Source: a virus
Length of the DNA stretch: 40,977 bases
Direction: 5' to 3' (one strand)
IMG/VR virus record: IMGVR_UViG_3300010157_000116
Span: 1-40,977 of that record
Part shown: positions 1-38,237 of the stretch, piece by piece
Layout of the letters: every line of letters starts with the position of its first letter
Position numbering within the stretch: the stretch's first letter is position 1
The notes under the pieces: generated by a model
The model's input: only the letters and a program-made list of their open reading frames with translations
The model's database searches: none
Told to the model about the DNA's origin: nothing
Program-made: the position numbers and the translations under genes

Positions 1-9
1 AATTTCCTA

Positions 10-156
10 ATGTCATATAGTTTAAATATTTTATCAGGAAACCCAATTGGATATTGGGAATTTAACGGAAACACTAATGATTATTTAAGTAGTAATAATT
101 TTGTTTCTAGTAGTGTTTCTTATAATTTTAGTGGTGAGTTAAAATGTTTAGATTAG
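10..156 (+). CDS. Truncated LamG-like protein fragment (48 aa, open to window edge)
   Basis: A short reading frame starts at an ATG at base 10 and stops at TAG 154-156. The frame is also open from base 1, so the gene could begin outside the window. Its NPIGYWEFNGNTNDY segment matches in style the NPTAYWSLGSN start of the 908-residue protein that follows, which is how concanavalin/LamG-type domains in phage adhesins often begin. It lies in the same reading frame as the next gene, separated by this single TAG and eight further sense codons. It may be the end of an upstream paralogue, a remnant of a duplicated adhesin gene, or the start of a longer gene interrupted by one stop. I infer a relic or tail end; no function can be assigned to the fragment alone. 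Confidence 0.45.
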   Translation: MSYSLNILSGNPIGYWEFNGNTNDYLSSNNFVSSSVSYNFSGELKCLD

Positions 157-168
157 GTAAACAAAAGG

Positions 169-174
169 TATAAA
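169..174 (+). promoter_or_regulatory. Possible -10 box for a leaderless LamG transcript
   Basis: GG followed by TATAAA at 169-174 lies exactly six bases before the ATG at 181, the same geometry as at 2953. No convincing -35 is visible. Weak on its own; supported mainly by the parallel with the next promoter. Confidence 0.3.
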
Positions 175-180
175 ATAATT

Positions 181-2907: not shown

Positions 2908-2949
2908 TAGTTAATTTTTGTTCAAAAATTTCGTTTTCAGCAATAAAAA

Positions 2950-2958
2950 TGGTAAAAT
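2950..2958 (+). promoter_or_regulatory. Extended -10 promoter, leaderless type, upstream of head module
   Basis: TGG followed by TAAAAT (2953-2958) lies in the 57-base gap after the LamG gene. Six bases separate the -10 box from the ATG at 2965 and there is no Shine-Dalgarno, so transcription would start at or next to the start codon. No clear -35 is visible. Confidence 0.5.
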
Positions 2959-2964
2959 CTTGTT

Positions 2965-3303
2965 ATGGCTAGAATGAATGTAACAGAAGTAGAAGAAGTC
3001 AATTATGGACTTTATTTGTGGCAAACCACTGACGGCAAATTGGTTGCTGATGATGATGGTAATTATCTTAATATTGCTGCTATGAAAGGTGATATTAGAA
3101 AAATAAATAAACTTAAAGCAGCAGCAAAATCTTATGGATTAGAGGGAGAGCCAGTTTGGTTTTCTGGACACCGACAAATCACAGAAGATGAATGGAATGA
3201 ACAGCACCAAAGAATGAATCTTGGTCTTGTTCCAGATGAACTAGATGTTCCAGCAATTAAAGAGGATATCGAACAAAAAAGGAAATTGGGTCTTTATAAA
3301 TAA
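2965..3303 (+). CDS. Small conserved-type protein upstream of portal
   Basis: A 112-residue, charged, soluble protein with no signal peptide or membrane segment. The N-terminal part has a GLYLWQTTDGKLVADDDGNYL stretch that looks like a small beta-rich unit. The middle and C-terminus are helical and polar (ITEDEWNEQHQRMNLGL, then KEDIEQKRKLGLYK). I do not recognise a named family. The stop codon overlaps the portal ATG by one base (TAATG), so the two are translationally coupled and it probably belongs to packaging or head assembly. The ATG at 2965 has no Shine-Dalgarno and follows a -10-like box by six bases, suggesting a leaderless start. Confidence 0.75.
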   Translation: MARMNVTEVEEVNYGLYLWQTTDGKLVADDDGNYLNIAAMKGDIRKINKLKAAAKSYGLEGEPVWFSGHRQITEDEWNEQHQRMNLGLVPDELDVPAIKEDIEQKRKLGLYK

Positions 3304-4883
3304 TGGCTAACTTGGTACCAGTAGATGACGATGATGATTTTAAAACAGTAAATATTGTTTCTGATCGTGATCGTGTTAGACGAGCACCAGACTCCGAATT
3401 TGAAGACCCATTTGCTAAAAACTGGGACGATCTTAAAAAAATTGATGGTCTTAGTGAAAACTTTAAACGTAGAGCAAATAGACTAGAAAAATCATTTACT
3501 GGGGTAGAAGACGCTAAATCAAAAAAACTAGACCCACTTGACCTAACAGGATATTCCCTGTTCATGATTGTTCAACCACCATACAATGTTATGTATTTGG
3601 CTCAACTATTTGATATGTCTCCATTTCATCATTCTGCGGTAGAGGCTAAAACAGCCAATGTTATTGGACTTGGCTATGAATTTGAAGAAAGCCCTAAAAC
3701 ATTATCTAGGGTAGAGGATGTATTAAGTGATCCCAAAAAACTAGATAAAATTAGAAAAAATATTACTCGTGGAAAATCAGAGCTAAAAGATTATATGGAG
3801 AGTATGAACTCCGATGATGGTTTTTTGGAAACCCTCAAAAAAGCATACACAGATTTAGAAGTAACTGGAAACGGTTACATTGAAATTGGCAGAACATCAA
3901 GTGGTAAGATTGGATACATTGGTCATATTCCCGCAATTACAATGCGTATTCGCCGTCACCGTGATGGATTTGTACAGGTTGTTTATAATCGTTATACATT
4001 CTTTAGAAATTATGGAGATACAATAACAGAAGATCAAATTGGCACAGATCCCCGACCAAATGAAGTAATTCATTTAAAGAAATATTCTCCAACAAATACA
4101 TATTATGGTATCCCAGACATTATGTCTGCAAAAAATGCTGTAGCTGGTGATGAATTTGCCCAGAGATTCAATCTTGACTACTTTGAAAATAAAGCTGTTC
4201 CTAGATATATTATTACAGTAAAGGGTGCAAAACTTAATGCAGATTCAGAAAGAAAACTTTTAGAGTTCTTTCAAACTGGTCTTAAGGGTCGTAATCATAG
4301 AACCCTTTATATACCGCTTCCTTCAGATGGAGAAAATGCTCGTGTAGAATTCAATATGGAGCCAATTGAAGCTGGCATTCAAGATTCATCATTTAAAGAG
4401 TATGCAATTGAATCCCGAGATCGTATTCTTTTGGCTCACCGTGTTCCAATTTCAAAGCTTGGAACACCACAGGGAATGTCTTTGGCGGGAGCAAAAGATG
4501 CAGATAAAACCTTTAAAGAACAAGTATGTAGACCGCAACAGGACTACTTAGAGCATAAGCTAAAGCCAGTAATTGCTGAAATTACAGATGCCTTTGTTCT
4601 TAAATTTAATGAACTTACACTTACAGACGAAGAAACTCAAGCAAGAATTGATGATGTTTATCTTAAGGATAAGGTTATTGTTCCTAATGATGTTAGACTT
4701 CGTAAGGGTCTTCCACCAAGAGATGGCGGGGACGATCCGTTAGAATTAAAACCACAACAAGCAGCTGATGCAGTAGCTAATGCAAAAGGCACAAGAGAAA
4801 GAGATCAAAAAAGAAATATAAACGCTGCTGACACTCAGGGTGATGCAAGAAACCCAAAGGGTGAAGGAAGAAAGCAAGAATAA
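3303..4883 (+). CDS. Phage portal protein
   Basis: A 526-residue protein with the features of phage portal proteins (PBSX/HK97-type group). The sequence GNGYIEIGR, the RIRRHRDGFVQVVYNRYTFF strand region, EVIHLKKYSPTNTYYGIPDI and the segment after it (FAQRFNLDYFENKAVPRYII) are the usual core motifs. The portal forms the dodecameric ring at one capsid vertex through which DNA is packaged and leaves. The acidic N-terminus (VDDDDDF) and the very polar C-terminus rich in Arg, Lys, Gln and Asn are probably disordered. It is coupled to the gene before it and followed by the protease, the usual head-gene order. The large terminase normally lies just upstream but is not in the window. Confidence 0.92.
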   Translation: MANLVPVDDDDDFKTVNIVSDRDRVRRAPDSEFEDPFAKNWDDLKKIDGLSENFKRRANRLEKSFTGVEDAKSKKLDPLDLTGYSLFMIVQPPYNVMYLAQLFDMSPFHHSAVEAKTANVIGLGYEFEESPKTLSRVEDVLSDPKKLDKIRKNITRGKSELKDYMESMNSDDGFLETLKKAYTDLEVTGNGYIEIGRTSSGKIGYIGHIPAITMRIRRHRDGFVQVVYNRYTFFRNYGDTITEDQIGTDPRPNEVIHLKKYSPTNTYYGIPDIMSAKNAVAGDEFAQRFNLDYFENKAVPRYIITVKGAKLNADSERKLLEFFQTGLKGRNHRTLYIPLPSDGENARVEFNMEPIEAGIQDSSFKEYAIESRDRILLAHRVPISKLGTPQGMSLAGAKDADKTFKEQVCRPQQDYLEHKLKPVIAEITDAFVLKFNELTLTDEETQARIDDVYLKDKVIVPNDVRLRKGLPPRDGGDDPLELKPQQAADAVANAKGTRERDQKRNINAADTQGDARNPKGEGRKQE

Positions 4884-12224: not shown

Positions 12225-15200
12225 GTGGCTGGTAACAATATTAACTTTACCGTTAGGGCTATTGGCAATTTCACACAGCTAGAAACAGAAATTGCTAAAC
12301 TTCAAAAAACAATTCGGACCGTCCAATCCACCCCGCTTATTGGTTCAACGGCAGCACAAGATGTTGCCAATATTAAAAAGGTACAAGACAGATTTGACCA
12401 GATGGTTGGATCTTCTCGTGCCTTTAATATTCAGATGGTTCAGTCAGCTGACCATATTAAAACACTCGGTCAAAATCTTGAGCGGGGTAAATTAAAACTT
12501 CACGATTATTACAGCCTATGGTCACAAAGAAATAGTAAAGCAAGTACAGAGCTTAATCAATTAGTTGATCAACAAGCCAGACTTGGAAAATCTTTTATAC
12601 TTCCAGATGCTCTTAAAACTGGATGGTCAAGAGCTATTACTAACCTTACTGCCGACCTAAAAACATTAGGTGCACAAGAAGATGCTGTAATGATTAAAGC
12701 CAAGGTTATGAACTCAGTTGTTCGTGGTCTTGGTACAGAAATGGTTAATTTTGGTAAAAATACCCAGTGGGCTGGTCGCCAGCTAACTGTTGGTTTGACA
12801 GTCCCTCTTGCTGCATTTGCAGCAATGGCTGCAAAACAGTTCAGAGATGTAAATACTGAACTTACAAGAATGCAAAGACTTTATGGTCTTGGTCTTAAAC
12901 CACCAAGTGATGCAGAACTTAACGCTATATCAAAGAAAATTATGGATCTTAGTACTACCGTTGCTAAGACTATGGGAATTGCACAAACTGAAACAGTAAA
13001 AGCTGCTGCATCATTTGCTGCTATTGGTCTGCAAGGCTCTCAACTTGTTGAAGCAACAAATCAAGCAATGCGTTTGTCAAAACTTGGTGCTGTAGATGCA
13101 CAAACTGCACAGCAAACAGTTGTTTCATTACAAAATGTTTACAAAGTAAATTCTGGAAATTTGGCAGAAGCGGTAAACTTCCTTAATGATATTCAGAAAC
13201 AAACATCAACATCACTCAGAGATCTAACTGATGCTATGCCTCGTGTTGGTCCAATTGTTGCACAACTTGGTGGAACATATAAAGACACAGCACTAATGAT
13301 GATTGCTATGAAAGAAGCTGGTGTACCAGCAGCACAGTCTGCAAACGCAATTAAGTCTGCTATGGCTTCGCTAATTGCTCCAACATCATCAGCACAAAAA
13401 GAATTTCAAAAATTTGGAATTAGTTTAACATCAATTAAAACAGAAACAAAAGGTAATCCAATAGCAATGGTTACTGATTTGCAGATGGCTTTACAGAAAT
13501 TAGATCCAACAACACAAGCAGTATTAATTGAAAAGCTTTTTGGTAAATTCCAGTTTGCTCGTATTGAAGCACTTATTAATAACCTTGGTCGTGCTGGAAG
13601 TCAGACACAAAATGCATTTAAGGTTGCTAATGCAAGTGCTCGTGAACTAGCAACTTTGGCGGATCAGGAAATGAGAGTTGCAACAAATTCAGTTTCTGCT
13701 AAATATGAAAGAGCGTTACAAGGGTTTAAGGCAAGTATTTTACCAATTGGTGAAGCAGCAACAAAAATTGCAACAAAATTCCTTGAGGTATTTAATGGAA
13801 TATCTAATTTTATAAATAAATTAGGACCATTAAAGGGAGTTTTGACTGGAATACTTGGTGGTGCTGCTGTAATTGGTCCAATACTTATGCTTACTGGTTT
13901 ATTTGGTAACTTAATTGGTTCTATAATTAAAGGCATGAATGTTTTTGCTATGTTTAAAAAAGGTTTTTCAAGCGGGGGGTGGATGGGAGGTCTTAAAGGA
14001 CTAACTAACTACTTTGAACAAGTAGAACTAAGTGCACTTAAGGCAGCAGAAAATACACAAACATTAACAGGTAAAACAGCAAATGCACAAGAAGCATTTA
14101 AACTCTTAAATAAAGAAGTTCAACTACTTGAATCCCGCCTAAGAGATATTGCTATGAATTCTGGAAAAGCATTGTCTCCAACTTCATATGCAAATATGAC
14201 AGATGAACAATTAAGACAACTTAATCTTTATGAAGCAGCAAGAAAACAGCAGGGTGGAGAAAGACCACATTACGAATCTAAAGCAACTGCATTCAAAAAC
14301 TATCAGGCAAATCCCTCAGCAGCTCCAGAACTTCAAGCAATGGAAGCTTGGTATATTGCTCAACATGGCTCACAAATAGGCTCAAGAAAATTTAGACAAT
14401 ATTTTGAAGAAGGTCAAATGGCACAATACACAATGGTGCCACAAGGTTCTGCAGCAGGTTTGCTTCAAAGACAATATGGTCAAGAGCCAGTTATATATGG
14501 TGGCAAATCTGGTCAAACACAAAGTCAGGTATTTGCAAGAGAAACTCAAAGACTTATTGATATACATGACCAACTTATTTCAGGTAAAATCAAAGATGAA
14601 GATTTAGCTAGAGAAGAGCTTACTAGAATTCTAGGAGCATCTAGTACAAAAGGAAAAACAATTAGTGCTGCACAAATTACAGCACTTGAAGGAATTGTTA
14701 ACCAAGTAACATTTTCCGAACAAACTGTAACAAATAATGTTGTAGAAAATTTAACAAAACAAAAGGCATTGCTTGTAGGTTCTGAAACCGCAATTCAAGA
14801 TTTAAATATGGAACTTACAAGAGTTATGTCTACTGGAGATGCATCAGATAGGGCAGCTAGAGTAGCTGGTGCTTGGAAAATTTTTTCAGATACATTGTCT
14901 ACTACCGCTTTAGCAGAAATTAGACAATTCCAAACAGCAATAACTCAGCAAATGGCAGCTGCTGGAAGTCCAGCAGAAGCACTTTTAGCTGCAAGAAATG
15001 CTGAAGCAGAAATTGCAAATACCGCTTTAGTATCAAGTCAATTAAGATCATCAGTACTTGGTCCAGGCGAAACAATGGGTGCTCAAAGAATTAAGTCATC
15101 TATTGTTGGATATGGATCTGAAATCACTAGAGCAACTGGGTTGCAAACTGGTGGTCATGCTTGGGTTCCAGGAAGTGGAACTGGGGATAAAGTTCCAGCA

Positions 15201-18200
15201 ATGCTTGAGCCTGGAGAATTTGTAGTTAATCGTAATGCTGCTAAACAATATGGCGGAATGCTTGAAGATATTAACTTTAATAGAGCACCAAGATTTATGT
15301 TAGGTGGATATACAGATAGGCGTGGAAAAAAGCTAACATCAAGAGATATGGAGTCAGTGCCAACAGATATAAAACTTAATATGCTAAAATACGCTCCAAA
15401 AAGAATGGTTGAGCAATTTGGTATAAATCCAAGAGATAAAAAATCAGATGCTACTTGGGAATTAAAAGGTAGTAATGGTATTTATATTGGAGATATAAGG
15501 GATAGAACGAGAACTTCTATTAATAAATCTTTAGATAATGATGGGGTAAGTCCAAGAGAATTTATTAAAGCTGCTTTAAATGGTTCAAGGGGACAAAATC
15601 CAGGAGAACAAATTCATATTAGGGGAACTCACTCCGACTTTTTACAAGAATTATATCTCAAAGGTTCTATTTCTAAAAGTAATTATGAAACAATGTTAAA
15701 AGAATTTGATAGAAGATATATCACTGAGCTTCTTGCAATGGAATCATCTGGCATAATGCTTACGGACAAAAATAATCCATTAGCAAGAATACAGACTGAT
15801 GTTATAAATTCACTTGGTCAAGATGCCACTTCTGCATTTAAAATGTTTACAGAAGAAAGTGTAAATATTACAGCAAAAAATAGAAAAGCTGGTAAAAAAG
15901 CTGGTGGTGGAGGTTCTACATCTGCAAGAATTGCAGACATTTTGTTTGGCTCCACTATGATGCAAATTCCAGCATTAAAAGGTTCAAGATCAACAGGAAC
16001 ACTTTTTGCTCATGGATTAAATACAAGTTGGATAAACAATATTCTTGCATTGCAAAGCGGTGGTGGAGTACCAGGATTTGATGAAGGTGGATTTACAGAT
16101 GCTCTTGCAAGAATTCAAGCAGTTGCTGATCAATATGGCTTGACTGGAAAGTTTTATAGTGGCGAATTTGCAAATGCATTAATGCCATTAAGTGAATTTG
16201 AATCTTTATCAAAAGCTGAACAAAAACAATACTTAGATTATATTAGCAACCTTTCTCATGGAAATGGAAAAATTTCTTTACCAAGTCTTGGAATAGGCAC
16301 AGAGCATCAAAGATTATTTAATGGAATTCGCCCAACTCGTCCAGTTGGAATTTCTTCAAGTTATGTGCGGGGTGTCCCAAGAGTTACTGGAATAAATCCA
16401 TATACTGGAGAGATAGAATATCTTCCAGAAGGAATAAATCCTTTTACTGGTTTGCCAGAAGGACAATTTGGTCCAAGACCTTGGAAAGACTTTACCGTTG
16501 GTTTACCATCTATAAAAGGTAGGAAGGACCTACTTGCTCCATTTTTATTTTCTAGTGAAAGAAAAGCTCAAATGTGGGCTACAGCAGATGAACAAAATCC
16601 ATCTAATGTAGCACCAGCAGAAAGTTGGCGTAGAGCAGGAATTGGCTCAAGGGTAAGTGATCCAATTCAAGAAGCACTACAATCATGGGTTGGTGGCTCA
16701 ATGGGTGCTTTTAGAAGTCCAATTAAAGATAATTTTATAACTAGAGTAAAGAATTTATTAGGATTGATGGGTCCGCTTTCTGGTCAAGATCTTGTTAGAT
16801 CAACTTGGGCTAGATATGGGCAAAAAAATATAAATGGTGTTAGGACACCAATTGCAAGCCAATTTGGTCCAGGTCAAGAAAAAACACTTGTTGACATGAT
16901 TCAATCTGGAAATTTATTGGGTCTTTCAGGAATGCCATTAGATATTTCTGGATTAACATCTTGGGCAGATGCATCAACATTAAAAGATAAATGGAATGGT
17001 CCTTCTTTATTTTCAAGGTTAAAAGGATTTTTAAAAAGTGCTGGCTGGGGCAGCGATAAAGATATTGCTCGTAAATTAAAGGGAGAATATTTAGGAAATG
17101 AAGTACCTTTATTACTAAGACTACTTACTGCTGGTAAAACTCAAGGTGTAGGAATTTCGGGATTAGTAAAAGACCCAACATATATGGGTCAACCGCTTGA
17201 CCTTGAAATGATGTTAACAAGAGAGCATATTCTTAAAAATCCTAGAGTTGCTATTGACTCAGTTAGTTCCGACCTTAAAACTAGATTGTTACAATTAAAT
17301 CTTATTGAAAGACAAAAGGGTGGCGGTATTCCAGGATTTGCTACTGGAGGATCTCCTTGGGTTCCAGGAAGCGGGAATGGAGATAGAGTACCCGCTATGC
17401 TTGAACCAGGTGAGTATGTTGTAAATAAAAATGCAGCAAAACAGTATGGTAGTTTATTAAATCATCTTAATTGGAATGCTGCACCTAGATTTATAGAAGG
17501 TTCTGGAAATAGAGCATCTAGGAGAGCTGCAGAAGGTAAAGGTTCTGTAGACCCACAAGTCACACTTATAGAAATGCAAGACACTATTCGCAAATTCTCT
17601 AAAATGTTCCCATCATCAGTAATTGGAGAAATTACGGCGGGGCTACATGATGGATTAGTTCCAATGTTTGCTGGACTACAAATTCCTGCAGCCCACCTAG
17701 CTAATATATTTACTATTGCAAAAGATGAAGTAAAGAAATCTGCAGATGACCTTGCAGATGGTGCTAAAAAAGCAGTTAATGCATTAAAGACGGGTTATCA
17801 AAATCCTGATTATTTAAAACAAACCCCAGAACATTTTACCAAATTAGAAAAAGCATCATATAGTCTTTCTGCAATATTTAAAAAAGCCGAAGATGCAACC
17901 GTTAAGATGAAAGATGATTTAATTAAAACTGGTAAACAAGCAAAATCAGCATTTTTAACAGGTCATCAAAATCCTGATCTTGCAGGTCGAACTCCTGATT
18001 ATTTCAGTAAAACAGAAAAATTTGCCACTAATGTTGGTGCCTTAACTAGAAAAGATGGTTGGATCACAATGTTTTCTAATATTAAAGATAAGATTGGTGG
18101 AAAAGTAGATCCCGAAACTGGTTCAAGAACAGGAATGCTTTCAAAATTAGGAAAAATTGGTTCAAGCAATCCAATGTTTGGAATGATAGCACAAATGGCT

Positions 18201-21200
18201 GCCCCAATGATTGGTGGTGCTTTACAAAAAGTTGCTGGAAATAATCAAATTGCACAAGGCGCAATTGGAATGGGTCAAGCTGGTGCACAAATTGGTTCTA
18301 TGTTTGGACCAGGAGGTGCTTTGATTGGTGCAGGTCTTGGTGCAGTTGGAGGATTAATAAAAGGGTGGGCAGACGAACAAGTAAGGAAAAGCCAAGATAC
18401 TGCTGCTGGAATATCCTCTTCGACAAGACTTAGTGGAACAGCACTTGACGCTCTTGGAATTAAACTTAAAGGATTTGGCGGTGCAACTATACTTGCTGCT
18501 AATAAATTAGAAACTGCTTCACAAAAAATGCAAAAAAATATTGATGCTGTTGCAAGTGCCTTAAAAAATGCAACAGATACAGAAACAGTAAATGCAATAA
18601 AAAATTTGACAGATGCATTTAAAGACAAAGATATTGCAAAGGTTTCTAATTTAATGCAAAATTTATATAGAACTACTTTAGCTGAAACTGGAAGCAAAGA
18701 TAAAGCAAAAATTGCTGTACAGGGGTATTTAAAAGCATCTGGGGCTAGTGAAACAGATACTGGAGCAGTTTTAGCGACATTACCTACACAAGAAAAAGCA
18801 AATACACTTTTGTCAAATATTATTAAAAAAGGTAAAGGAACCGCAGCAGATATTGGTCAATTATTATCTCAAGTTTCACAAGGCTCAGAGGGACTATCAA
18901 AATTTTCAAGTCAATTAAATAATTTAAGTTCAAAAGGTATAAGTGTTGAATCATACGACACATTCAAATCTTTTAATGATACTGTAACAGCTACAAATCC
19001 ACAATTAGCAAAAACAAATAATTTGTTGTGGTCTACTGGTGTAAGTATGAAAAATATTGTAAGTATAGATTCATTAATGAATAGTGGATTAAAAGGCACA
19101 AGCAAACAAATGCTTATATTAGGTCAAAATACATCAGTAGTTAATGGTCTTATGGATGTTTATGCAAAGAAAGAAGAACTTGCATCATCTGTCAGCAATC
19201 TTGTAGAAAAAGCAAAAAAAGATTATGCCGACAAACAGGAAAAGCGTAAAAAAGCTTTAGAAAAAGATATTACAACTCAACAATCTTTAATAAAATCTGA
19301 TGAAAAAATAATTAAATCTTATAACAAAAAAATAAAAATAGAAGACAATTTAATATATAATTATAATCAAAAAATTAAGGGTTATCAAAAAGAATCTTCT
19401 GAAATTGATAAATCAGTTAATAAAATTCAAAAAGAAATTGATGCTAGGCAAAAGCTTTATGATAAAAATCAACAAGCTATTCAACAAGAACAAACTCTTT
19501 CTGATCTTAGATCTGAAATTACGAGAGCTGCAGGTTCTGGAGATATTTTAGCTCAAGCAGCAGCGCAAGATAAATATAATAAAGAATTAGAAAGACAAGC
19601 ATCACTTAGGGCAAAAGAAGCACTAGATGCAGCAGCTCAGGGTAAAATAGATAATTTAAGGCTATCACAAGATCAATTAAATTTAAAAATTGAAAATACT
19701 CAAAATTTAATTGACGGGTGTGAAAAGAAACAAAGAGTTTATAATACAGCTATAGATGACACACAAAATAAAATGGATAATGCTAATGGAAAAATTACTA
19801 CAGCTCAACAAGAAATTGATACAATGAATACTAAAGCAGAAGCATTTAATACAACTTTAGATGGAGCTGGTGATAAAATTGCTGCATGGTATTCAGATCC
19901 AAAAAATAAGAAAAAAGGAATAAAAGACCTAGTTGATTTTATTAAAAATCCAAATAATGGGTTGGCAGGAGCAATTTCTCAAACTAAATCTGGAATTGCT
20001 GGCTGGGCAACTCAAATGGATACTACATACAATTCAGATTCATTTAGAGGTTTTAGAACAATGTTGGAAAATGTTGGAAAAGTTAGTTTTGGAAACAACT
20101 TATTTAAAGAACAATTTTATATGGGATATTTTCAGCAGAATCCAGGTAATTCAATAAGTGATGCTAATAAAGCATACAGATCGGCAGCACAGGCTGCTGG
20201 ATTTAATGTAAAAAGAAAAAAACCAAAAAATGGACAAGAAGTAGTACAAAATGGTGTAAATTATATATATTCAAATGGTAAATGGTATACATGGACATGG
20301 AGCAATACGCCTGGCGATGACAATCGAAAAATATATACAGAAACAACTAAAACTCCAAAAGATCCTGATGGGGTACCATATCTTAGGGCAATGGGTGGTT
20401 ATGTAAGAGGAGCAGGAGATAGTACATCAGACTCTATTCCCGCCCGACTTTCAAATGGTGAGTATGTAGTTAAAGCTTCGGCGGTAGCACAATACGGCTC
20501 ATCCTTCCTTGACGGTATTAACCAACAAAGATATGCTAAGGGTGGTATGGTAATGCCAAATAGAGCACTTCCACATAACGATAAATTTAGAGAAATTGTT
20601 GGATGGACCACAGCCTTTGATTCAAAATCTAATTTAATTCAAAAAGAACCAATAATAGACAATCTTGTTCATTTAGGAAATGTATATGATAGAAATCAAT
20701 TAATTGATTTTGAAAAATCTATTATTTCAAGAACTACCAATTTAGTTCATTCTTTATTAAAATCTAATAAAAACACTCTTGAACATAATATTAATCTTCC
20801 AATATCTTCAATACTTTCTAATTATTTTAGAAAGCCAAAACTTGACAATTCTAGCATAATACCGCCAGCTATAGAGACTATTAAAAATATTATGCATGGT
20901 TATACCCCAACTGACAAATCCGTTGAATCTAATATGATGTCAGGTGCTCATTTACCAGTTTTTGCAAATGGAAAATTGTATTCAAATCCTTATTATTATA
21001 GGTATATAAGAAATTTTTGGACAAAAGAAAAAAATCCATTTGGTCAAGGACTTGACAGTAAAAACAATGAAGTTACTTTTAATCCATTAACGGTAATACC
21101 ACATGAAATGGGTCACTGGATGAATGATGCTATGACTAAAATGTATAAAAAGAGCGGTAAGAAAAATATATTTTCATCTAAATTTAGAACACAAGTAGGC

Positions 21201-24200
21201 TATGATGCAGATAGAAAACATGCAATCAGTTATAATGGAAAATTTGGTTATTCTGTTGCAGAAGAAAGTATGGCAGATATGTGGTCTGGACTATTTAATA
21301 GATACATGTACGGATCTGATGTAAATAGTATTTTTAATCCTCCATCAAATTCTAAATATGCAACTAATACTTCATTAAATCCGTTTGACCCATTTAATCG
21401 TGGCGGAGCAAAAACAAGATCTGATGACGTTCTTATTGGAGATCGTCATGGAAAATCTCATAAACTTTATACGTTATCCAATGCTGATGTTCATGCAAGG
21501 TATGATCAAAGACAACTTGCTGGCTCATCTGGGTTTAACGATCCAAATAGTTTATTATCAATATTTGGTCTTAATGGTTTTAAAAGATTTAGTAAAATTA
21601 ATAAAACTCCAGGTGCAAGAGATTTATGGAATAATTATATTAGAGATTATACATTAACTAATAAAGATTTTCCAGGAATGGTAAGATTCAAAGATGGCGG
21701 TTCGGTAGGAAAAAATAAAAATGATCCTGATAAACCAGTTTTTGATTTTATAGGGCTTCTTAACAAAAAAATTATAAACCCATTAATGATAGCAAATGGT
21801 AAAAAGGCTGGATCAGGACCACATTATAGCACAAACCATCATATGACTACACCTATGCAAATTATGCGAATTGCAGACCCGATTCGCAAATATCTTGTAG
21901 GTGAAACAAGAGGTGGAGATGCATTTTCTGGTCCTGGGGGACAAATTTACTTAGGTGGTCCTGATTATCAGGATCCAGGAACAATATTACACGAAACTGG
22001 TCACGCCCTTAATACGAAGTTGGGAAGATCATCTAATAATTTTCTTAAAGATAGAAGTACATATAATTTAGGTGTAGGTACATTTTTAAATAAAAAGAAA
22101 AATGGACCAGGATGGAAATCGGCATTAAAAGATTATGGCAATAAAACTACAAACAATGGAAATACAATTTTTGCTGGATTTAGAAGAATTCCAGTAGAAG
22201 AAACTAGAGCACAAGTTTGGCAAGGTGCTTTAGCAAAATTGATGGGGATTAAACCCAATTTTAATACCAATGGTATTGATGCATGGACAAAGGGCGGAAA
22301 TCCGTTTTCTAGGAAGCCAGTGCCTGGCTTTTTATGGTATCCATTTGACAAAAATGTTATGTCTGTTGATCAACACCCAGATCACGATCAAGGATCTGCA
22401 GCTTCAACAATGGGATACAGCAGACCACTAGATTGGCTAAGATTTTTAGGCATAAATATTCCAAAATCTTTAGCAAATACAAAACAAGATTCAATACCTT
22501 TTGATGCAAAAATTTGGACAAAAGATGATTCTCTAGGCAGCGATTTTAATGTTAGTTTTAAGTATAAAGATATTAAAGATGCTCAGTATGATATAGAAAG
22601 AAGTAATTCAATTGAACCAGAAGCTTCTGCTATGCCAGCAATTTTAATATCTGGATTAAGAGGTATCTGGGCACAAATTATAAATGCTGATCAAAATATG
22701 CAATTTAACACAAAATCTGGATATATTCCAACAGGCTGGATGCAAGTTGGTGGACCCGATATAGTTGCCCCTGGCAATAAGCCAATAAAGCCAATAAAAA
22801 CTTTTAATAATGGCGGGTACATCAGAGGTCTTGGCACTGGAACTTCTGATTCAATTCCCGCCAGATTATCTAACGGTGAATATGTTGTTAAGGCATCATC
22901 TGTTGCTAAATATGGAACATCATTTTTAAATAATGTTAATGAACAAAAATTTAAAGAGGGCGGGCTTGTAGGAAATAAACATAAACATCATGGTTCTGGT
23001 CGTGGTGGGGGTAGCCAAGTAAATTATAATCCATATACAGATCCTAATTTTCATGGCGTAGGTGGAAATATTGGCAATACAGAAGATAATATTTCTAGAA
23101 GCCCATATGGATCATGGTGGAGTGCCATAGTTGACTCAAGTGTAAGACAGAGAAGAGGATTCTTTGGTTCTGGTTTGTTGCATGATTTAGTAAATCCATA
23201 TGTTGAAATTGGTCGTGGATTTGGGTATGGCGCAGAGCAGGGAATTCAAATGCTTATGTCTGGAAATATGTTTAATCCTAACTACAAATTTGGTAAAAAT
23301 ACACACTTTAAAGATAATCCATTTGCTGGTCCAAATGGTTTAAGAAACTTGTTTGGCGATATCATGCTAGGTGGTGGTATTGGAAAACTTATGGGTGCTG
23401 CAAAAAATGTTACTAGACCAATGTGGGAACCCGCCTTACATGCTGCAAAACCATATGTGGTTGGTGGCATTAAATGGGCTGGAAAAGGCTTGATGAATGT
23501 AGGAAGATCACTTGCTCAAGGTGCAATGAAACTTACTGGAACAATGACAAGAGGTGTTGGTCACGGCATTACATCAGTAATGAATGGTCTTAATCCTATA
23601 TTTAGACCACAAATAGGTAATGTAACAAGAGGAAATCTAAAATCAGAAACAAAACAAGTTGGAAATGAATTCCAGCAACAAATTCAAAAACAAATGCTTA
23701 AAAGAGTTTCTATGGGTCTAAAGAAAAAAGCAAGACCACATAACCCAATTAGAACTGGGCGGGCTACTGCAGAATACATGGCACTTCAAGATGCCGAAGA
23801 TTTAAGAAATCTCCCAATTAGCAATCTTGAAATGAAGGATTTAGAAGAAGCAGCCCGTACAGGGGAATACTCAAATAGTGAGCATATACTTTCACTATTA
23901 ACAGAACAAAGAAGAATTAAAGTAGTTAAAGCTATATTAAAAGACAAAGGCATTCTTCATGGTATGGGAGAAAGAGATAAAATTTATGGCAATATTTTAG
24001 AAGAAATTAGATATAAATTAAGTAAAGAAGGAATTGAATCAGGTTATCAACCAAGCTGGATACATCGACCATCTCACAAAGCAGGACATTTTATTACAGA
24101 AGAATATCCATATGTAAGACAAGAGCAAATTATTGCACAAATTCTTGGTCAAAAAAAATTAGCATCATTAATTGGAAAAACGAAAAGTCATAAAGATGCG

Positions 24201-25976
24201 TCAAACTTATTTATCAAGCATTATGGAATAAATGGAAGTCAAATAATGGGAGAACTGTTTTCTCCTCATCTTCTAGGAAATTCTGAAAGATTTTTGGCAT
24301 TAGCAAGTAGTAATCCAGGTTTAGTTAAATTGGGTGCTGGTCATATAATGGGACCAACAGAAGGAAGAGCAACACAAATTTTTGCAGATAAATTCCCATC
24401 AATTAAAAAATTAAATGAAGACATTTCTTTAAAAACATTAAAAACTATTTACCCAGGTGTTAAATGGACAAAAGACACTTTGATTCAAGTTATGAGAACA
24501 GATGCAGTACCATTCCTTGATGATCCAACAAAAATGATGGGTCTAACAAAAGCTCAAAGAGCAGAAATTATGAATATTAGAAAAATAGAAATTGAGAACG
24601 CTGGTTTTCTTGGAGCAACATGGGATAATATTGGTGAAGGGTTTATGGATGGTTATGGAAGAATGAACCGTAATCAATTTGGATATTATTCCTATAATCC
24701 AGAAAACTTACCACTTTCACTTTTTGAAGCTAACGTTAAAGATGTGCTGGATCCTTCAAGAATTACTTCAACTATTGGTTATCTAGCAGCTGGTGACACA
24801 ATGGGTTCCCTAGGATTAAGCCCACTACAAGCTGTATTTACAAGTCCAAGTGTATTAAAAGCTGTTGAAAAAATTGTGGGTCTTCCAAAAGGTTTTGGAC
24901 TGGGTAGAGAAGAACAAATGCTCCTAAGAGATAGAGCAATTTCGGCAGGAAAAACTGAAGCTACTGCTGGTAGTCCTTGGAATATGAGATATCTAAGCAC
25001 AATGAATGAAATGGGCTATACCCCAAATCAAATGCTTAAATATATGTTGAAATTTAAACTAAAAAATTCATCACTCTATGATCAACAATTTGATCGTTTA
25101 AAATTAGATGAAAAAGTAACAATGATTCAACAACTATTTAAAATGACAGCCTCAAAAGATGGGTTTAAAATTGGTGCTAGATCAGATGTACTAAATTTCC
25201 CAGACCCAAGTGCTCTTGCATTTATGAAAAGTCTTGTTCAAAGATTAGCAGTTTTTAATAAAAAGAACCCACAAGTATCTCTTGAAGGCGGTACAACTTT
25301 TTATGGAGTTCATACAGATTTCTATGCTCTTTCAAAACAAGAAAAACAATTATTTGAAACATTTTCTAGACAAAAATTAAATGTATTACAAATGGAATCC
25401 ATTGAAAGAGCAGCATTTGTTGATATGTTGGAGCAAAGAATTCCTGGAATGCCACTTACTTATTTTGATAGAAAAATGAATAATGATTATGAATTGTGGA
25501 AAGATGGCAAACTTGCTCATGTTAAACCAGATATGCTAAGGTTATTTACACAAATACTTAAGATGGAAAAGAATCGTAATAAAGGATTTGCAAGTGGAGG
25601 ATATATTTCAGGAGCAGGTACCGCAACCTCTGATTCAATTCCCGCCCGATTGTCTAATGGTGAGTATGTTGTTAGAGCAGATTCAGTAGCTAGATATGGC
25701 ACATCATTCCTAGATGGAATTAATGAACAAAAGTTTGCTACTGGTGGATTAGTTAATTCTAAGAGATTTAATATACCATCGATAGGTGCTAATTATAGAA
25801 TTGGCGGGGATGCTAATAATGCTAATTCATCCTTTAATGACAATTCAGTGTATAATATTAATGTAAGCGTTGATACTAACGCAAGTCCTGACGATATTGC
25901 AAGTGCAGTTATGAAAAAGATTGAAAGACAACAAGCAACCATATCAACTGGTAGAAAAACTGGAGGGATGAGATAA
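12225..25976 (+). CDS. Giant tape measure protein with repeats and two zincin-like modules
   Basis: A 4583-residue protein from GTG 12225 (GGAGG eight bases upstream). Residues about 1-530 are a typical helical tape-measure start (coiled coils, then NFGKNTQWAGRQLTVGLTVP and KSAMASLIAPTSSAQKEFQK). Hydrophobic segments lie at about 537-572 and, Gly/Ala-rich, about 1981-2055; a Lys-rich coiled coil spans about 2331-2540. The C-terminus (YNINVSVDTNASPDDIASAV) is also typical. Five Gly-rich repeats start at residues 976, 1708, 2724, 3530 and 4458. Between them are large non-repeated modules, two with zincin motifs (HEMGH at 2960-2964, HETGH at 3256-3260). It sets tail length and passes into the cell with DNA; the modules may be cargo or wall-degrading enzymes. 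At about 1.5 angstrom per residue, full use as a ruler would mean a tail near 690 nm, an upper bound. Confidence 0.93.
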   Translation: MAGNNINFTVRAIGNFTQLETEIAKLQKTIRTVQSTPLIGSTAAQDVANIKKVQDRFDQMVGSSRAFNIQMVQSADHIKTLGQNLERGKLKLHDYYSLWSQRNSKASTELNQLVDQQARLGKSFILPDALKTGWSRAITNLTADLKTLGAQEDAVMIKAKVMNSVVRGLGTEMVNFGKNTQWAGRQLTVGLTVPLAAFAAMAAKQFRDVNTELTRMQRLYGLGLKPPSDAELNAISKKIMDLSTTVAKTMGIAQTETVKAAASFAAIGLQGSQLVEATNQAMRLSKLGAVDAQTAQQTVVSLQNVYKVNSGNLAEAVNFLNDIQKQTSTSLRDLTDAMPRVGPIVAQLGGTYKDTALMMIAMKEAGVPAAQSANAIKSAMASLIAPTSSAQKEFQKFGISLTSIKTETKGNPIAMVTDLQMALQKLDPTTQAVLIEKLFGKFQFARIEALINNLGRAGSQTQNAFKVANASARELATLADQEMRVATNSVSAKYERALQGFKASILPIGEAATKIATKFLEVFNGISNFINKLGPLKGVLTGILGGAAVIGPILMLTGLFGNLIGSIIKGMNVFAMFKKGFSSGGWMGGLKGLTNYFEQVELSALKAAENTQTLTGKTANAQEAFKLLNKEVQLLESRLRDIAMNSGKALSPTSYANMTDEQLRQLNLYEAARKQQGGERPHYESKATAFKNYQANPSAAPELQAMEAWYIAQHGSQIGSRKFRQYFEEGQMAQYTMVPQGSAAGLLQRQYGQEPVIYGGKSGQTQSQVFARETQRLIDIHDQLISGKIKDEDLAREELTRILGASSTKGKTISAAQITALEGIVNQVTFSEQTVTNNVVENLTKQKALLVGSETAIQDLNMELTRVMSTGDASDRAARVAGAWKIFSDTLSTTALAEIRQFQTAITQQMAAAGSPAEALLAARNAEAEIANTALVSSQLRSSVLGPGETMGAQRIKSSIVGYGSEITRATGLQTGGHAWVPGSGTGDKVPAMLEPGEFVVNRNAAKQYGGMLEDINFNRAPRFMLGGYTDRRGKKLTSRDMESVPTDIKLNMLKYAPKRMVEQFGINPRDKKSDATWELKGSNGIYIGDIRDRTRTSINKSLDNDGVSPREFIKAALNGSRGQNPGEQIHIRGTHSDFLQELYLKGSISKSNYETMLKEFDRRYITELLAMESSGIMLTDKNNPLARIQTDVINSLGQDATSAFKMFTEESVNITAKNRKAGKKAGGGGSTSARIADILFGSTMMQIPALKGSRSTGTLFAHGLNTSWINNILALQSGGGVPGFDEGGFTDALARIQAVADQYGLTGKFYSGEFANALMPLSEFESLSKAEQKQYLDYISNLSHGNGKISLPSLGIGTEHQRLFNGIRPTRPVGISSSYVRGVPRVTGINPYTGEIEYLPEGINPFTGLPEGQFGPRPWKDFTVGLPSIKGRKDLLAPFLFSSERKAQMWATADEQNPSNVAPAESWRRAGIGSRVSDPIQEALQSWVGGSMGAFRSPIKDNFITRVKNLLGLMGPLSGQDLVRSTWARYGQKNINGVRTPIASQFGPGQEKTLVDMIQSGNLLGLSGMPLDISGLTSWADASTLKDKWNGPSLFSRLKGFLKSAGWGSDKDIARKLKGEYLGNEVPLLLRLLTAGKTQGVGISGLVKDPTYMGQPLDLEMMLTREHILKNPRVAIDSVSSDLKTRLLQLNLIERQKGGGIPGFATGGSPWVPGSGNGDRVPAMLEPGEYVVNKNAAKQYGSLLNHLNWNAAPRFIEGSGNRASRRAAEGKGSVDPQVTLIEMQDTIRKFSKMFPSSVIGEITAGLHDGLVPMFAGLQIPAAHLANIFTIAKDEVKKSADDLADGAKKAVNALKTGYQNPDYLKQTPEHFTKLEKASYSLSAIFKKAEDATVKMKDDLIKTGKQAKSAFLTGHQNPDLAGRTPDYFSKTEKFATNVGALTRKDGWITMFSNIKDKIGGKVDPETGSRTGMLSKLGKIGSSNPMFGMIAQMAAPMIGGALQKVAGNNQIAQGAIGMGQAGAQIGSMFGPGGALIGAGLGAVGGLIKGWADEQVRKSQDTAAGISSSTRLSGTALDALGIKLKGFGGATILAANKLETASQKMQKNIDAVASALKNATDTETVNAIKNLTDAFKDKDIAKVSNLMQNLYRTTLAETGSKDKAKIAVQGYLKASGASETDTGAVLATLPTQEKANTLLSNIIKKGKGTAADIGQLLSQVSQGSEGLSKFSSQLNNLSSKGISVESYDTFKSFNDTVTATNPQLAKTNNLLWSTGVSMKNIVSIDSLMNSGLKGTSKQMLILGQNTSVVNGLMDVYAKKEELASSVSNLVEKAKKDYADKQEKRKKALEKDITTQQSLIKSDEKIIKSYNKKIKIEDNLIYNYNQKIKGYQKESSEIDKSVNKIQKEIDARQKLYDKNQQAIQQEQTLSDLRSEITRAAGSGDILAQAAAQDKYNKELERQASLRAKEALDAAAQGKIDNLRLSQDQLNLKIENTQNLIDGCEKKQRVYNTAIDDTQNKMDNANGKITTAQQEIDTMNTKAEAFNTTLDGAGDKIAAWYSDPKNKKKGIKDLVDFIKNPNNGLAGAISQTKSGIAGWATQMDTTYNSDSFRGFRTMLENVGKVSFGNNLFKEQFYMGYFQQNPGNSISDANKAYRSAAQAAGFNVKRKKPKNGQEVVQNGVNYIYSNGKWYTWTWSNTPGDDNRKIYTETTKTPKDPDGVPYLRAMGGYVRGAGDSTSDSIPARLSNGEYVVKASAVAQYGSSFLDGINQQRYAKGGMVMPNRALPHNDKFREIVGWTTAFDSKSNLIQKEPIIDNLVHLGNVYDRNQLIDFEKSIISRTTNLVHSLLKSNKNTLEHNINLPISSILSNYFRKPKLDNSSIIPPAIETIKNIMHGYTPTDKSVESNMMSGAHLPVFANGKLYSNPYYYRYIRNFWTKEKNPFGQGLDSKNNEVTFNPLTVIPHEMGHWMNDAMTKMYKKSGKKNIFSSKFRTQVGYDADRKHAISYNGKFGYSVAEESMADMWSGLFNRYMYGSDVNSIFNPPSNSKYATNTSLNPFDPFNRGGAKTRSDDVLIGDRHGKSHKLYTLSNADVHARYDQRQLAGSSGFNDPNSLLSIFGLNGFKRFSKINKTPGARDLWNNYIRDYTLTNKDFPGMVRFKDGGSVGKNKNDPDKPVFDFIGLLNKKIINPLMIANGKKAGSGPHYSTNHHMTTPMQIMRIADPIRKYLVGETRGGDAFSGPGGQIYLGGPDYQDPGTILHETGHALNTKLGRSSNNFLKDRSTYNLGVGTFLNKKKNGPGWKSALKDYGNKTTNNGNTIFAGFRRIPVEETRAQVWQGALAKLMGIKPNFNTNGIDAWTKGGNPFSRKPVPGFLWYPFDKNVMSVDQHPDHDQGSAASTMGYSRPLDWLRFLGINIPKSLANTKQDSIPFDAKIWTKDDSLGSDFNVSFKYKDIKDAQYDIERSNSIEPEASAMPAILISGLRGIWAQIINADQNMQFNTKSGYIPTGWMQVGGPDIVAPGNKPIKPIKTFNNGGYIRGLGTGTSDSIPARLSNGEYVVKASSVAKYGTSFLNNVNEQKFKEGGLVGNKHKHHGSGRGGGSQVNYNPYTDPNFHGVGGNIGNTEDNISRSPYGSWWSAIVDSSVRQRRGFFGSGLLHDLVNPYVEIGRGFGYGAEQGIQMLMSGNMFNPNYKFGKNTHFKDNPFAGPNGLRNLFGDIMLGGGIGKLMGAAKNVTRPMWEPALHAAKPYVVGGIKWAGKGLMNVGRSLAQGAMKLTGTMTRGVGHGITSVMNGLNPIFRPQIGNVTRGNLKSETKQVGNEFQQQIQKQMLKRVSMGLKKKARPHNPIRTGRATAEYMALQDAEDLRNLPISNLEMKDLEEAARTGEYSNSEHILSLLTEQRRIKVVKAILKDKGILHGMGERDKIYGNILEEIRYKLSKEGIESGYQPSWIHRPSHKAGHFITEEYPYVRQEQIIAQILGQKKLASLIGKTKSHKDASNLFIKHYGINGSQIMGELFSPHLLGNSERFLALASSNPGLVKLGAGHIMGPTEGRATQIFADKFPSIKKLNEDISLKTLKTIYPGVKWTKDTLIQVMRTDAVPFLDDPTKMMGLTKAQRAEIMNIRKIEIENAGFLGATWDNIGEGFMDGYGRMNRNQFGYYSYNPENLPLSLFEANVKDVLDPSRITSTIGYLAAGDTMGSLGLSPLQAVFTSPSVLKAVEKIVGLPKGFGLGREEQMLLRDRAISAGKTEATAGSPWNMRYLSTMNEMGYTPNQMLKYMLKFKLKNSSLYDQQFDRLKLDEKVTMIQQLFKMTASKDGFKIGARSDVLNFPDPSALAFMKSLVQRLAVFNKKNPQVSLEGGTTFYGVHTDFYALSKQEKQLFETFSRQKLNVLQMESIERAAFVDMLEQRIPGMPLTYFDRKMNNDYELWKDGKLAHVKPDMLRLFTQILKMEKNRNKGFASGGYISGAGTATSDSIPARLSNGEYVVRADSVARYGTSFLDGINEQKFATGGLVNSKRFNIPSIGANYRIGGDANNANSSFNDNSVYNINVSVDTNASPDDIASAVMKKIERQQATISTGRKTGGMR
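15150..15311 (+). repeat. Tape measure repeat R1 (subtype A)
   Basis: Encodes GGHAWVPGSGTGDKVPAML followed by EPGEFVVNRNAAKQYG and a short helix ending in APRFMLGG. Subtype A, shared with R2. Confidence 0.85.
17346..17492 (+). repeat. Tape measure repeat R2 (subtype A)
   Basis: Encodes GGSPWVPGSGNGDRVPAML followed by EPGEYVVNKNAAKQYG and ending in APRF; very close to R1. It is preceded at 17319 by GGGIPGF, a boundary motif also found as GGGVPGF at 16059. Confidence 0.85.
20394..20546 (+). repeat. Tape measure repeat R3 (subtype B)
   Basis: Encodes GGYVRGAGDSTSDSIPARL followed by SNGEYVVKASAVAQYGSSFL and ends in a GG. Marks the junction between the coiled-coil part and the first zincin module. 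Confidence 0.88.
22812..22964 (+). repeat. Tape measure repeat R4 (subtype B)
   Basis: Encodes GGYIRGLGTGTSDSIPARL followed by SNGEYVVKASSVAKYGTSFL and a closing EGG. Marks the end of the second zincin module. Confidence 0.88.
25596..25748 (+). repeat. Tape measure repeat R5 (subtype B)
   Basis: Encodes GGYISGAGTATSDSIPARL followed by SNGEYVVRADSVARYGTSFL and a closing TGG. Separates the last unknown module from the conserved C-terminus. Confidence 0.88.
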
Positions 25977-36721: not shown

Positions 36722-37157
36722 TGTAAGCTTAACAGCACAAGAAATTAATACTTTAAAGTCTGTTCAAACAAATGCTCAGACTAGACTTAATTTAAAAAAC
36801 TTTTGTTTTAATAGTGCTGCAAACGCAAAACTTAATGCAAGAACATTTCCATTTATTGGAAATAACTCAAATGGTATGAGAGTTTATGCTGGAATACAGG
36901 ATATAACACTTAGCAAAGGTGATGCAACTGCAAAAACAGTGCAATTTGATATGACTACAATTTCATTTACAAATCAACCAGCACTTACAGCAACCTTTTC
37001 TTCTTCAGATTTAGCAATACTTAATAACGACATAACTGTTACAATTACAACAGACTCAGCTAACATAAATATAGTAAAGGTTAATGTTAAAGCAGGAGCA
37101 GGTGCAAAATCAGAAATTAATGGCTCGGTACATCTAATGGCAATTGGATATGCCTAG
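36711..37157 (+). CDS. Small beta-rich hypothetical protein
   Basis: A 148-residue protein starting at ATG 36711 with AAGGAGAGG upstream. The N-terminus is helical (LTAQEINTLKSVQTNAQTRL). The rest alternates strands (RVYAGIQDITLS, TVQFDMTTISFT, ITVTITTDSANINIVKVNV), like a small immunoglobulin-type sandwich. No family recognised. The context is the end of the tail cassette, so a minor structural protein is the best guess. An HNH endonuclease gene begins within its last eight bases. Confidence 0.7.
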   Translation: MPDNVSLTAQEINTLKSVQTNAQTRLNLKNFCFNSAANAKLNARTFPFIGNNSNGMRVYAGIQDITLSKGDATAKTVQFDMTTISFTNQPALTATFSSSDLAILNNDITVTITTDSANINIVKVNVKAGAGAKSEINGSVHLMAIGYA

Positions 37158-37413
37158 TTATAAAATTCTTAAATCTTGGTCAAAAAGAGAAAAAAGAATT
37201 TCAAGAGAAGGATACTCTCTCATTAAAATACCAGAACATCCAAAATCTTTTGGGGGTTGGTATTATGAACACCGACTAATAATTGAAAAAGAACTTGACA
37301 GAATATTAGAAGTATGGGAAACTATACACCATATAAATGAAAATAAGCAAGACAATAGAATAGAAAATCTATTTCTTTGCACAAGAGAGCAACATAACAA
37401 AGCTCATAAGTAG
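37150..37413 (+). CDS. HNH endonuclease (homing type)
   Basis: An 87-residue protein from ATG 37150; TTG 37144 is an in-frame alternative. Neither has a good Shine-Dalgarno. YYEHRLIIEKELDRIL followed by ETIHHINENKQDNRIENLFL and a final H..H (REQHNKAH) is the full HNH_3-type motif: the His-His pair, the Asn of DNR, and the last His bind metal and DNA. Free-standing HNH genes of this size in phages usually cut and spread themselves as homing endonucleases. It is wedged between a structural gene and the metallophosphoesterase, at the border between structural and replication regions. Confidence 0.88.
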   Translation: MPSYKILKSWSKREKRISREGYSLIKIPEHPKSFGGWYYEHRLIIEKELDRILEVWETIHHINENKQDNRIENLFLCTREQHNKAHK

Positions 37414-37427
37414 AAAGTATATAATTA

Positions 37428-38237
37428 ATGACAAACGATCTTAAGTGGATGCTATCGTCTGACCAACAATTCCCTTATCAAGATGATAAGATGATTGAAT
37501 TGTGGTTTAAGGTTATGAAGTGGTTTAAGCCAGATGTTGTAGACTATCTGGGCGACACAGATGATCAAGCTTGCTACAGCAAGTATACAGAAGGTAGGTC
37601 TGCAGAATTTCTTAAGATGTATAAAGATAATAATGGAGACCAAATTGTTCCATTGATGCAACACGAGGCAAAGCTGGCTAAAGAATTTTATGCTAGAACT
37701 CGAAAGATTGCAAAAAAAGCACAATTGTTTTCAGCATTAGGCAATCACGATATCCGTGTCTTTGATTATGTTGATGCAAAACTTCCAGAACATATTAAGT
37801 TTGTAACTCCAGAAACACTTTGGGGACTTGATTCTTTAGGATACGATTACATTTATTACAACGAACCACCAAAATTAAGATTTGGCGACATTCATGTTCA
37901 TCATGGAAATGCAATTTCACAAAATGCAGGTGAGTCAGTTCGTAAGGATGTAGATAATTTTGGGGTGTCTATTATTCGTGGACACTCACATCGTGCTGGT
38001 GTGTATTTTAATACATATGAGTTGCGAAATGGCGGGAGAGGCGAAACGCTTCGTGGCTATGAAATTGGTCATATGTGCGATGAAAAAAGTTCGGGCATGA
38101 TGTATACCAATAATCATAATTGGCAAAAAGCATTTGCCATAGCACATATTGAAAATGGAATTTATCCACACATACAGTTAATTCATGTTTCCCCAGACTA
38201 CACTTGTGTAGTAGATGGAAAAAAGTTTTCCATCTAA
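37428..38237 (+). CDS. Calcineurin-like metallophosphoesterase
   Basis: A 269-residue protein with all metallophosphoesterase motifs in order: SSDQQ (Asp12), LGDTDD (Asp43), LGNHD (Asn106-His107), VHHGN (His158-His159) and RGHSHR (His186, His188). The usual His two after the first Asp is Gln14. The enzyme uses two metal ions to hydrolyse phosphoesters; the substrate (nucleic acid, nucleotide or phosphoprotein) cannot be told. Phage members often sit with replication genes, as here. No clear Shine-Dalgarno beyond AGAAAG about ten bases before the ATG. Confidence 0.88.
   Translation: MTNDLKWMLSSDQQFPYQDDKMIELWFKVMKWFKPDVVDYLGDTDDQACYSKYTEGRSAEFLKMYKDNNGDQIVPLMQHEAKLAKEFYARTRKIAKKAQLFSALGNHDIRVFDYVDAKLPEHIKFVTPETLWGLDSLGYDYIYYNEPPKLRFGDIHVHHGNAISQNAGESVRKDVDNFGVSIIRGHSHRAGVYFNTYELRNGGRGETLRGYEIGHMCDEKSSGMMYTNNHNWQKAFAIAHIENGIYPHIQLIHVSPDYTCVVDGKKFSI

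What the first reader, a model, noticed from the sequence alone, without database searches (positions are those of the whole stretch)
20547..22811. Two consecutive zincin-type metallopeptidase-like modules inside the tape measure
Module one has HEMGHWMN (His2960, Glu2961, His2964) and EESMADMWSG about 49 residues later (Glu3013/3014). Module two has HETGHALN (His3256, Glu3257, His3260) and EETRAQVWQG 65 residues later (Glu3325/3326). The shared HExGHxxN ... EE(S/T)xA...WxG pattern says they are paralogous zincins with a Glu third ligand. Tape measures with peptidoglycan hydrolases of other families are known; a tandem zincin pair is not something I recognise. Possible roles: wall or surface-protein cleavage at entry, or an ejected effector.
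Basis: partly seen in the sequence, partly recalled or inferred. Interest (0 to 1): 0.85.

Follow-up and report, generated by a model that had tools for sequence, protein, structure and literature searches.

The report
Protease cassettes inside phage tape measure
A very long phage tail-ruler protein carries two probable zinc proteases in a swappable segment near its tip; related uncultured phages carry other proteases or wall-cutting enzymes in the same place, suggesting that the ruler doubles as an enzyme carrier for entering the host cell.

Summary
Confirmed: the 4583-aa tape measure protein (TMP, 12225-25976 +) has HEMGHWMN/EESMADMWSG (His2960, His2964, Glu3014) and HETGHALN/EETRAQVWQG (His3256, His3260, Glu3326). 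The two modules align colinearly (0 of 300 shuffles score as high). They look like gluzincin-type metallopeptidases, but no profile library places them and both AlphaFold runs failed (pLDDT 44 and 36), so active-site geometry is unproven.

The motif is not isolated. Among 62 non-redundant related TMPs from uncultured phages, HExxH occurs 9 times (0.55 expected), always in the last 35% of the protein; all 11 modules compared, window included, have a downstream ExxA. Peptidoglycan hydrolases occupy the same zone in other relatives. About 55-residue 'GG..G.GT.TSDSIPARLSNGEYVV' linkers bound these segments. Relative L118 has the same TMP but goes from coiled coil through one linker to the C-terminus: the window's zincins and module C (about 1680 aa) are a linker-bounded insertion.

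Best reading: interchangeable protease cargo in the TMP's delivery end, released at ejection and probably acting on envelope proteins; self-processing and a cytoplasmic effector remain open. New variant of a known kind (enzyme-carrying TMPs, zincins of injected 'polyvalent' phage proteins).

The parts
12225..25976 (+). tape measure protein gene, 4583 aa
   Evidence: PhageMin_Tail 2.9e-29; tape_meas_TP901 2.3e-27; same gene order as Stanwilliamsviridae phages, whose TMPs are 2076-2097 aa
13836..13892 (+). only TM-like segment of the TMP (residues 538-556)
   Evidence: hydropathy scan
15138..15314 (+). linker 1 (VPAMLEPGEFVV type, residues about 972-1030)
17334..17504 (+). linker 2 (VPAMLEPGEYVV type, residues about 1704-1760)
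19149..19889 (+). coiled-coil segment (residues 2309-2555)
   Evidence: SMC-like match E 2.2e-4; matches Daubenski TMP 1229-1472
20376..20549 (+). linker 3 (SDSIPARLSNGEYVV, residues 2718-2775), left border of the zincin cassette
20577..21719 (+). zincin module 1 (residues about 2785-3165)
21102..21125 (+). HEMGHWMN: zinc-ligand His2960 and His2964, catalytic Glu2961
21261..21290 (+). EESMADMWSG: probable third ligand Glu3014
21720..22793 (+). zincin module 2 (residues about 3166-3523)
21990..22013 (+). HETGHALN: zinc-ligand His3256 and His3260, catalytic Glu3257
22197..22226 (+). EETRAQVWQG: probable third ligand Glu3326
22794..22973 (+). linker 4 (SDSIPARLSNGEYVV, residues 3524-3583)
22974..25577 (+). 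module C, unidentified cargo (residues 3584-4451), absent from relative L118
   Evidence: no Pfam, NCBIfam or convincing PDB match
25578..25754 (+). linker 5 (SDSIPARLSNGEYVV, residues 4452-4510), right border of the inserted block
25755..25973 (+). conserved TMP C-terminus (residues 4511-4583), the probable hub-docking end
   Evidence: aligned with L118 and other relatives; analogy to the Douge TMP C-terminus in the baseplate hub (PMC13033339)

Best explanation
The two modules are gluzincin-type metallopeptidase domains (HExxH plus Glu in a downstream ExxA helix) carried as cargo in a linker-bounded cassette of the tape measure protein, between the coiled-coil rod and the C-terminal hub anchor. 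They sit in the tail until baseplate opening, leave with the TMP at the start of ejection, and most likely cut host proteins in the cell envelope (wall- or surface-anchored proteins) while the TMP makes the path for DNA. In relatives the same zone holds peptidoglycan hydrolases, alone or together with a zincin. Shown here: motifs, homology of the pair, recurrence and position of such domains, the insertion relative to L118, sharing of the zone with wall hydrolases. Inferred: fold and zinc binding, activity, release at ejection, envelope substrate. My confidence by step: real gluzincin fold about 0.85; delivered TMP cargo about 0.75; envelope proteins as main substrate about 0.45.
For: HExxH enriched (9 against 0.55 expected) and confined to the last 35% of related TMPs. 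ExxA 25-72 residues after HExxH in 11 of 11 modules, background 24%. Motifs retained in family A (L210, L076, L144; 54-66% to L210), B (L203, L209; about 25%) and C (L191, L192; about 24%). L062 weakly matches the YpfJ-type neutral zinc metallopeptidase model NF050010 over a stretch holding both motifs (E 0.007; best member 1.2e-4). L118 TMP aligns with window residues 5-1017, 1976-2775 and 4455-4582 and lacks the block between. In the last 900 aa of 53 linker TMPs: NlpC/P60 5, M23 4, SLT_3 3, M15_4 2. Zincin TMPs can also hold CHAP (L060, E 7.8e-12), NlpC/P60 (L019/L138, 1.8e-8), LysM (L062/L076, about 1e-5) or a sub-threshold M15 (L192). TMP release through the hub and a TMP channel across the envelope are reported or proposed for phage Douge (PMC13033339), whose TMP has the same linkers (E 3.8e-30).
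Against: No usable structure: pLDDT 43.6 and 36.3, no Foldseek match at E <= 0.001. No family model recognises the window modules. No sequence relative of the window's own two modules was found. Nothing computed distinguishes an envelope substrate from a cytoplasmic one or from the TMP itself. The tail lumen is narrow for folded domains (general knowledge), so the folding state during delivery is unclear.
Confidence: 0.5

Rival explanations
1. Self-processing peptidases: the zincins cut the TMP, for example between cassettes, during maturation or after ejection, freeing modules B and C or trimming the TMP, as proposed for zincins of polyvalent proteins.
For: Zincin domains are the commonest domain of injected polyvalent phage and plasmid proteins, and autoproteolysis is proposed for them; phage P1 DdrB is processed before packaging (PMC5512222). 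The window TMP holds further unidentified cargo (modules B and C).
Against: Only 9 HExxH in 62 related TMPs, while the linkers occur throughout, so linker processing cannot need a zincin in cis. TMP zincins fall into several mutually unrecognisable sequence groups, more than a fixed cis substrate would suggest.
Confidence: 0.2
2. Cytoplasmic effectors: the zincins are carried into the host cell with the DNA and cut defence or regulatory proteins.
For: Precedent for an enzyme fused to a TMP that transcribes phage genes in the host: the P23-45 TMP RNA polymerase (PMC10770324). Zincins as effectors are proposed for polyvalent proteins (PMC5512222). Strong sequence diversification of TMP zincins.
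Against: Position at the TMP end that docks in the hub and so leaves first, sharing its zone with wall hydrolases; P23-45's polymerase is at the opposite, N-terminal, end.
Confidence: 0.2
3. Inactive or structural domains that kept a zincin-like fold for assembly or spacing.
For: No family match and poor models; cargo is dispensable in relatives.
Against: HExxH and ExxA are retained in every TMP zincin found, although family B and C members share only about 24% of residues.
Confidence: 0.08

Closest known systems
Zincin-like MPTase domains of polyvalent proteins (Iyer et al. 2017, PMC5512222)
   Same: Zincins with HExxH and a Glu in the next conserved helix, embedded (sometimes in several copies) in giant multidomain phage proteins delivered with the DNA.
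   Different: Here the carrier is a structural tape measure protein; 'tape measure' does not occur in that paper's main text, and the modules match no Pfam model convincingly.
TMPs with peptidoglycan hydrolases (TM4 motif, enterococcal TMP transglycosylases; PMC10194240 and references in it)
   Same: Same protein and same C-terminal zone; relatives here carry NlpC/P60, CHAP, M23, SLT_3.
   Different: No peptidoglycan hydrolase was recognised in the window TMP; HExxH zincins are not of the M23 or M15 type, and the enterococcal survey saw only lytic transglycosylases in TMPs.
P23-45 TMP-fused virion RNA polymerase (PMC10770324)
   Same: Giant (5002-aa) TMP carrying an enzyme as cargo; a metallopeptidase domain is also annotated there.
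   Different: Cargo at the N-terminus is an RNA polymerase; its metallopeptidase is described only as characteristic of many TMPs, its family was not checked here.
Stanwilliamsviridae (Streptomyces phages Annadreamy, Daubenski)
   Same: Same structural gene order; portal up to about 56%, capsid about 54% identical; homologous TMP N-terminus.
   Different: TMPs of about 2090 aa without HExxH. In Annadreamy the region after the coiled coil reads, by eye, as lysozyme-like plus M23; this was not confirmed by a profile search.
YpfJ / KPN_02809 neutral zinc metallopeptidase (NF050010)
   Same: Weak match of TMP zincin L062 over HExxH and ExxAD (E 0.007).
   Different: Far below the curated cut-off (16 against 250 bits); the window modules do not match it.

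Membership tests
Gluzincin metallopeptidases (HExxH plus Glu) | HExxH in a helix | tested here: met
   Motif exact in both modules and enriched in related TMPs; helix predicted locally at pLDDT about 75 for module 2
Gluzincin metallopeptidases (HExxH plus Glu) | third-ligand Glu downstream, usually ExxxA/D or ExxA(D) | tested here: met
   E3014-SMAD and E3326-TRAQ; ExxA in 11 of 11 TMP zincins against 24% background
Gluzincin metallopeptidases (HExxH plus Glu) | His, His and Glu converge on one zinc site in a zincin fold | tested here: inconclusive
   AlphaFold pLDDT 43.6 and 36.3; no fold match
Gluzincin metallopeptidases (HExxH plus Glu) | zinc binding and peptidase activity | not testable with these tools
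   needs purified protein
Polyvalent-protein MPTase | match to a described MPTase family model | tested here: not met
   No Pfam family recognised window modules; only weak M48 at E 0.068-0.14
Polyvalent-protein MPTase | multidomain protein delivered with the DNA | tested here: inconclusive
   Multidomain TMP shown; delivery follows from TMP biology, not tested
Tail-associated peptidoglycan hydrolase in a TMP | recognisable peptidoglycan hydrolase domain | tested here: not met
   Only PhageMin_Tail found above cut-off in the whole TMP
Tail-associated peptidoglycan hydrolase in a TMP | position in the C-terminal delivery zone of the TMP | tested here: met
   Same zone as hydrolases of relatives
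TMP | conserved TMP domain and gene order between tail chaperone and distal tail genes | tested here: met

The most novel reading that the evidence does not exclude
Tape measure proteins of this large, mostly uncultured phage group are a general delivery chassis: a conserved ruler with linker-bounded slots into which unrelated protease, wall-hydrolase and unknown enzyme cassettes are swapped, with zincins as host-specific protease effectors.
Probability: 0.3. Interest if true: 0.78.

Novelty: new variant of a known kind. Interest (0 to 1): 0.56.

Why it matters
If true, the tape measure is more than a ruler and pore-former: it is a modular carrier that brings proteases, not only wall hydrolases, to the host at the first moment of infection. 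That would join two themes now treated apart (tail-associated lysins and injected polyvalent proteins), give a reason why TMP lengths in one phage group range from about 1600 to 4600 aa without an obvious need for longer tails, and supply natural tail-borne proteases with testable specificities.

Tried and rejected
Sequence relatives of the window's two modules: none in viral contigs, in cultured phages even at E 10, in 39 related records or in fetched loci. A motif scan gave only L166/L167, a 546-aa non-TMP protein whose HEMGHWLNGRH pattern recalls pappalysin-type M43 enzymes (recalled, not tested); rejected as a relative. Structure of module 2 with 11 divergent zincins, and of family A with 3 members: both too poor to use; Foldseek hits meaningless. 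The A6 profile against PDB touched several unrelated HExxH enzymes at E >= 0.05 only, a motif-level resemblance. Host by genome search: only one contig, in a bin labelled cyanobacterium (L248), probably a binned phage contig, so the host stays open; actinobacterial relatives make an actinobacterium likely. Assembly chimera considered and rejected: one open frame, uniform GC3 of 0.14-0.20 across modules, colinear relatives. Zincins of other TMPs are not found in cultured phages. Literature: no paper in the library joins TMP and an HExxH zincin cargo (searches gave none on point); absence there is not proof of absence.

Full report
What was claimed and what is there. The window is a 40,977-base IMG/VR virus fragment, 34% GC. 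ORF 12225-25976 (+) encodes a 4583-aa tape measure protein (TMP): Pfam PhageMin_Tail E 2.9e-29, NCBIfam tape_meas_TP901 E 2.3e-27. The motifs and residue numbers of the finding are exact.

The phage. Portal (up to about 56% identity), head maturation protease and capsid (about 54%) match the Stanwilliamsviridae of Streptomyces and, more weakly, Rhodococcus phages, and gene order from portal to the minor tail proteins is the same as in Annadreamy and Daubenski. Their TMPs are 2076-2097 aa, less than half the window's. An actinobacterial host is therefore likely but not shown.

Are the two modules alike and real? Local alignment of residues 2785-3165 with 3166-3535 scores 127.5, shuffles 81.5 +/- 12.1 with none of 300 reaching it; other parts of the same TMP score at most 90.5. 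The alignment is colinear and includes HExGHxxN, EExxAxxWxG and a downstream D.H...DQ segment that BLASTP also finds (E 0.005). No family library recognises them: Pfam gives Peptidase_M48 at E 0.14 or 0.068, below any cut-off; PHROGs and NCBIfam nothing. AlphaFold with the few divergent rows available gave no usable fold (pLDDT 43.6); only the HExxH helix and the Glu-bearing helix rose to about 75 and 69. A second run on a better-conserved TMP zincin family was also poor (36.3), and Foldseek found nothing.

Related TMPs. Three scans of IMG/VR (gene after the TMP, TMP N-terminus, linker) gave about 240 loci. In 62 non-redundant linker-bearing TMP frames (160,015 aa) HExxH occurs 9 times, 0.55 expected, and permuted control motifs 0-2 times; all 9 lie in the last 35% of the protein. 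Together with the window there are 11 modules compared, and each has E-x-x-A 25-72 residues after HExxH (background for a matching window 24%). They form groups A (L210/L062, L076, L144), B (L203, L209), C (L191, L192), and the singletons L060, L138/L019 and the window pair; between groups BLAST sees no similarity. Within groups, HExxH and ExxA survive at 24-66% identity. The TMPs were chosen by linker or N-terminal similarity, so the rate of 9 in 62 is not a population frequency.

Cassette architecture. The window TMP holds five copies of a roughly 55-residue linker, three nearly identical (GG..GAGT.TSDSIPARLSNGEYVVKASSVA.YG..FLD.IN.Q; 62-67% identity). Both zincins lie between linkers 3 and 4, and module C (868 aa, unidentified) between linkers 4 and 5. 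Relative L118 (2300 aa) aligns to window 5-1017, 1976-2775 and 4455-4582; its single last linker matches both linker 3 and linker 5 of the window. L006, a fragment, shows the same. The block of about 1680 aa with the zincins is therefore an insertion (or was lost in L118) with linker borders. Other relatives carry different cargo there: in the last 900 aa of 53 TMPs, NlpC/P60 5, M23 4, SLT_3 3, M15_4 2. Some zincin TMPs also hold CHAP, NlpC/P60 or LysM domains.

How it probably works. In phage Douge, whose TMP carries the same linkers (E 3.8e-30), the TMP is a trimer whose C-terminus docks in the baseplate hub; release of the TMP opens the gate, and a channel across the envelope is attributed to it (PMC13033339). 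By analogy the window's zincins sit just above the hub anchor and would leave first. Sharing this zone with wall hydrolases makes the envelope the most likely place of action; the HExxH type makes protein, not peptidoglycan, the likely substrate. This last step is inference. Self-processing, as proposed for zincins of polyvalent proteins (PMC5512222), and a cytoplasmic effector role, by analogy to the TMP-fused RNA polymerase of P23-45 (PMC10770324), are the main rivals.

Novelty. Enzyme cargo in TMPs and zincins in injected giant phage proteins are both known. A zincin cassette in a TMP, its recurrence in several unrelated groups, and a tandem pair were not found in the literature that could be searched. 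I rate it a new variant of a known kind.

Noticed in passing
Its role is unknown.
   Followed up: partly
window 22974-25577: Module C, 868 aa between linkers 4 and 5, has no recognisable domain and is absent from L118.
   Followed up: partly
window 15372-17333: Module B between linkers 1 and 2 (about 650 aa) is unidentified; its first part weakly matches TMP segments of L135, L112 and L113, no PDB match.
   Followed up: partly
L060, L062, L076, L138/L019: TMPs that combine a zincin with CHAP, LysM or NlpC/P60 domains in the same C-terminal zone.
   Followed up: yes
L169, L231, L146, L141, L131, L170: Further giant TMPs (3679-4402 aa) without HExxH and with unexamined cargo.
   Followed up: no
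window 37144-37413 and 37428-38237: Probable HNH endonuclease gene (by position and by eye) and a metallophosphoesterase gene (phrog_221, E 3.8e-59) downstream of the tail genes, as in Annadreamy.
   Followed up: no
L166 7269 onward: A non-TMP 546-aa protein with HEMGHWLNGRH from an unrelated phage, M43-like by recall.
   Followed up: no
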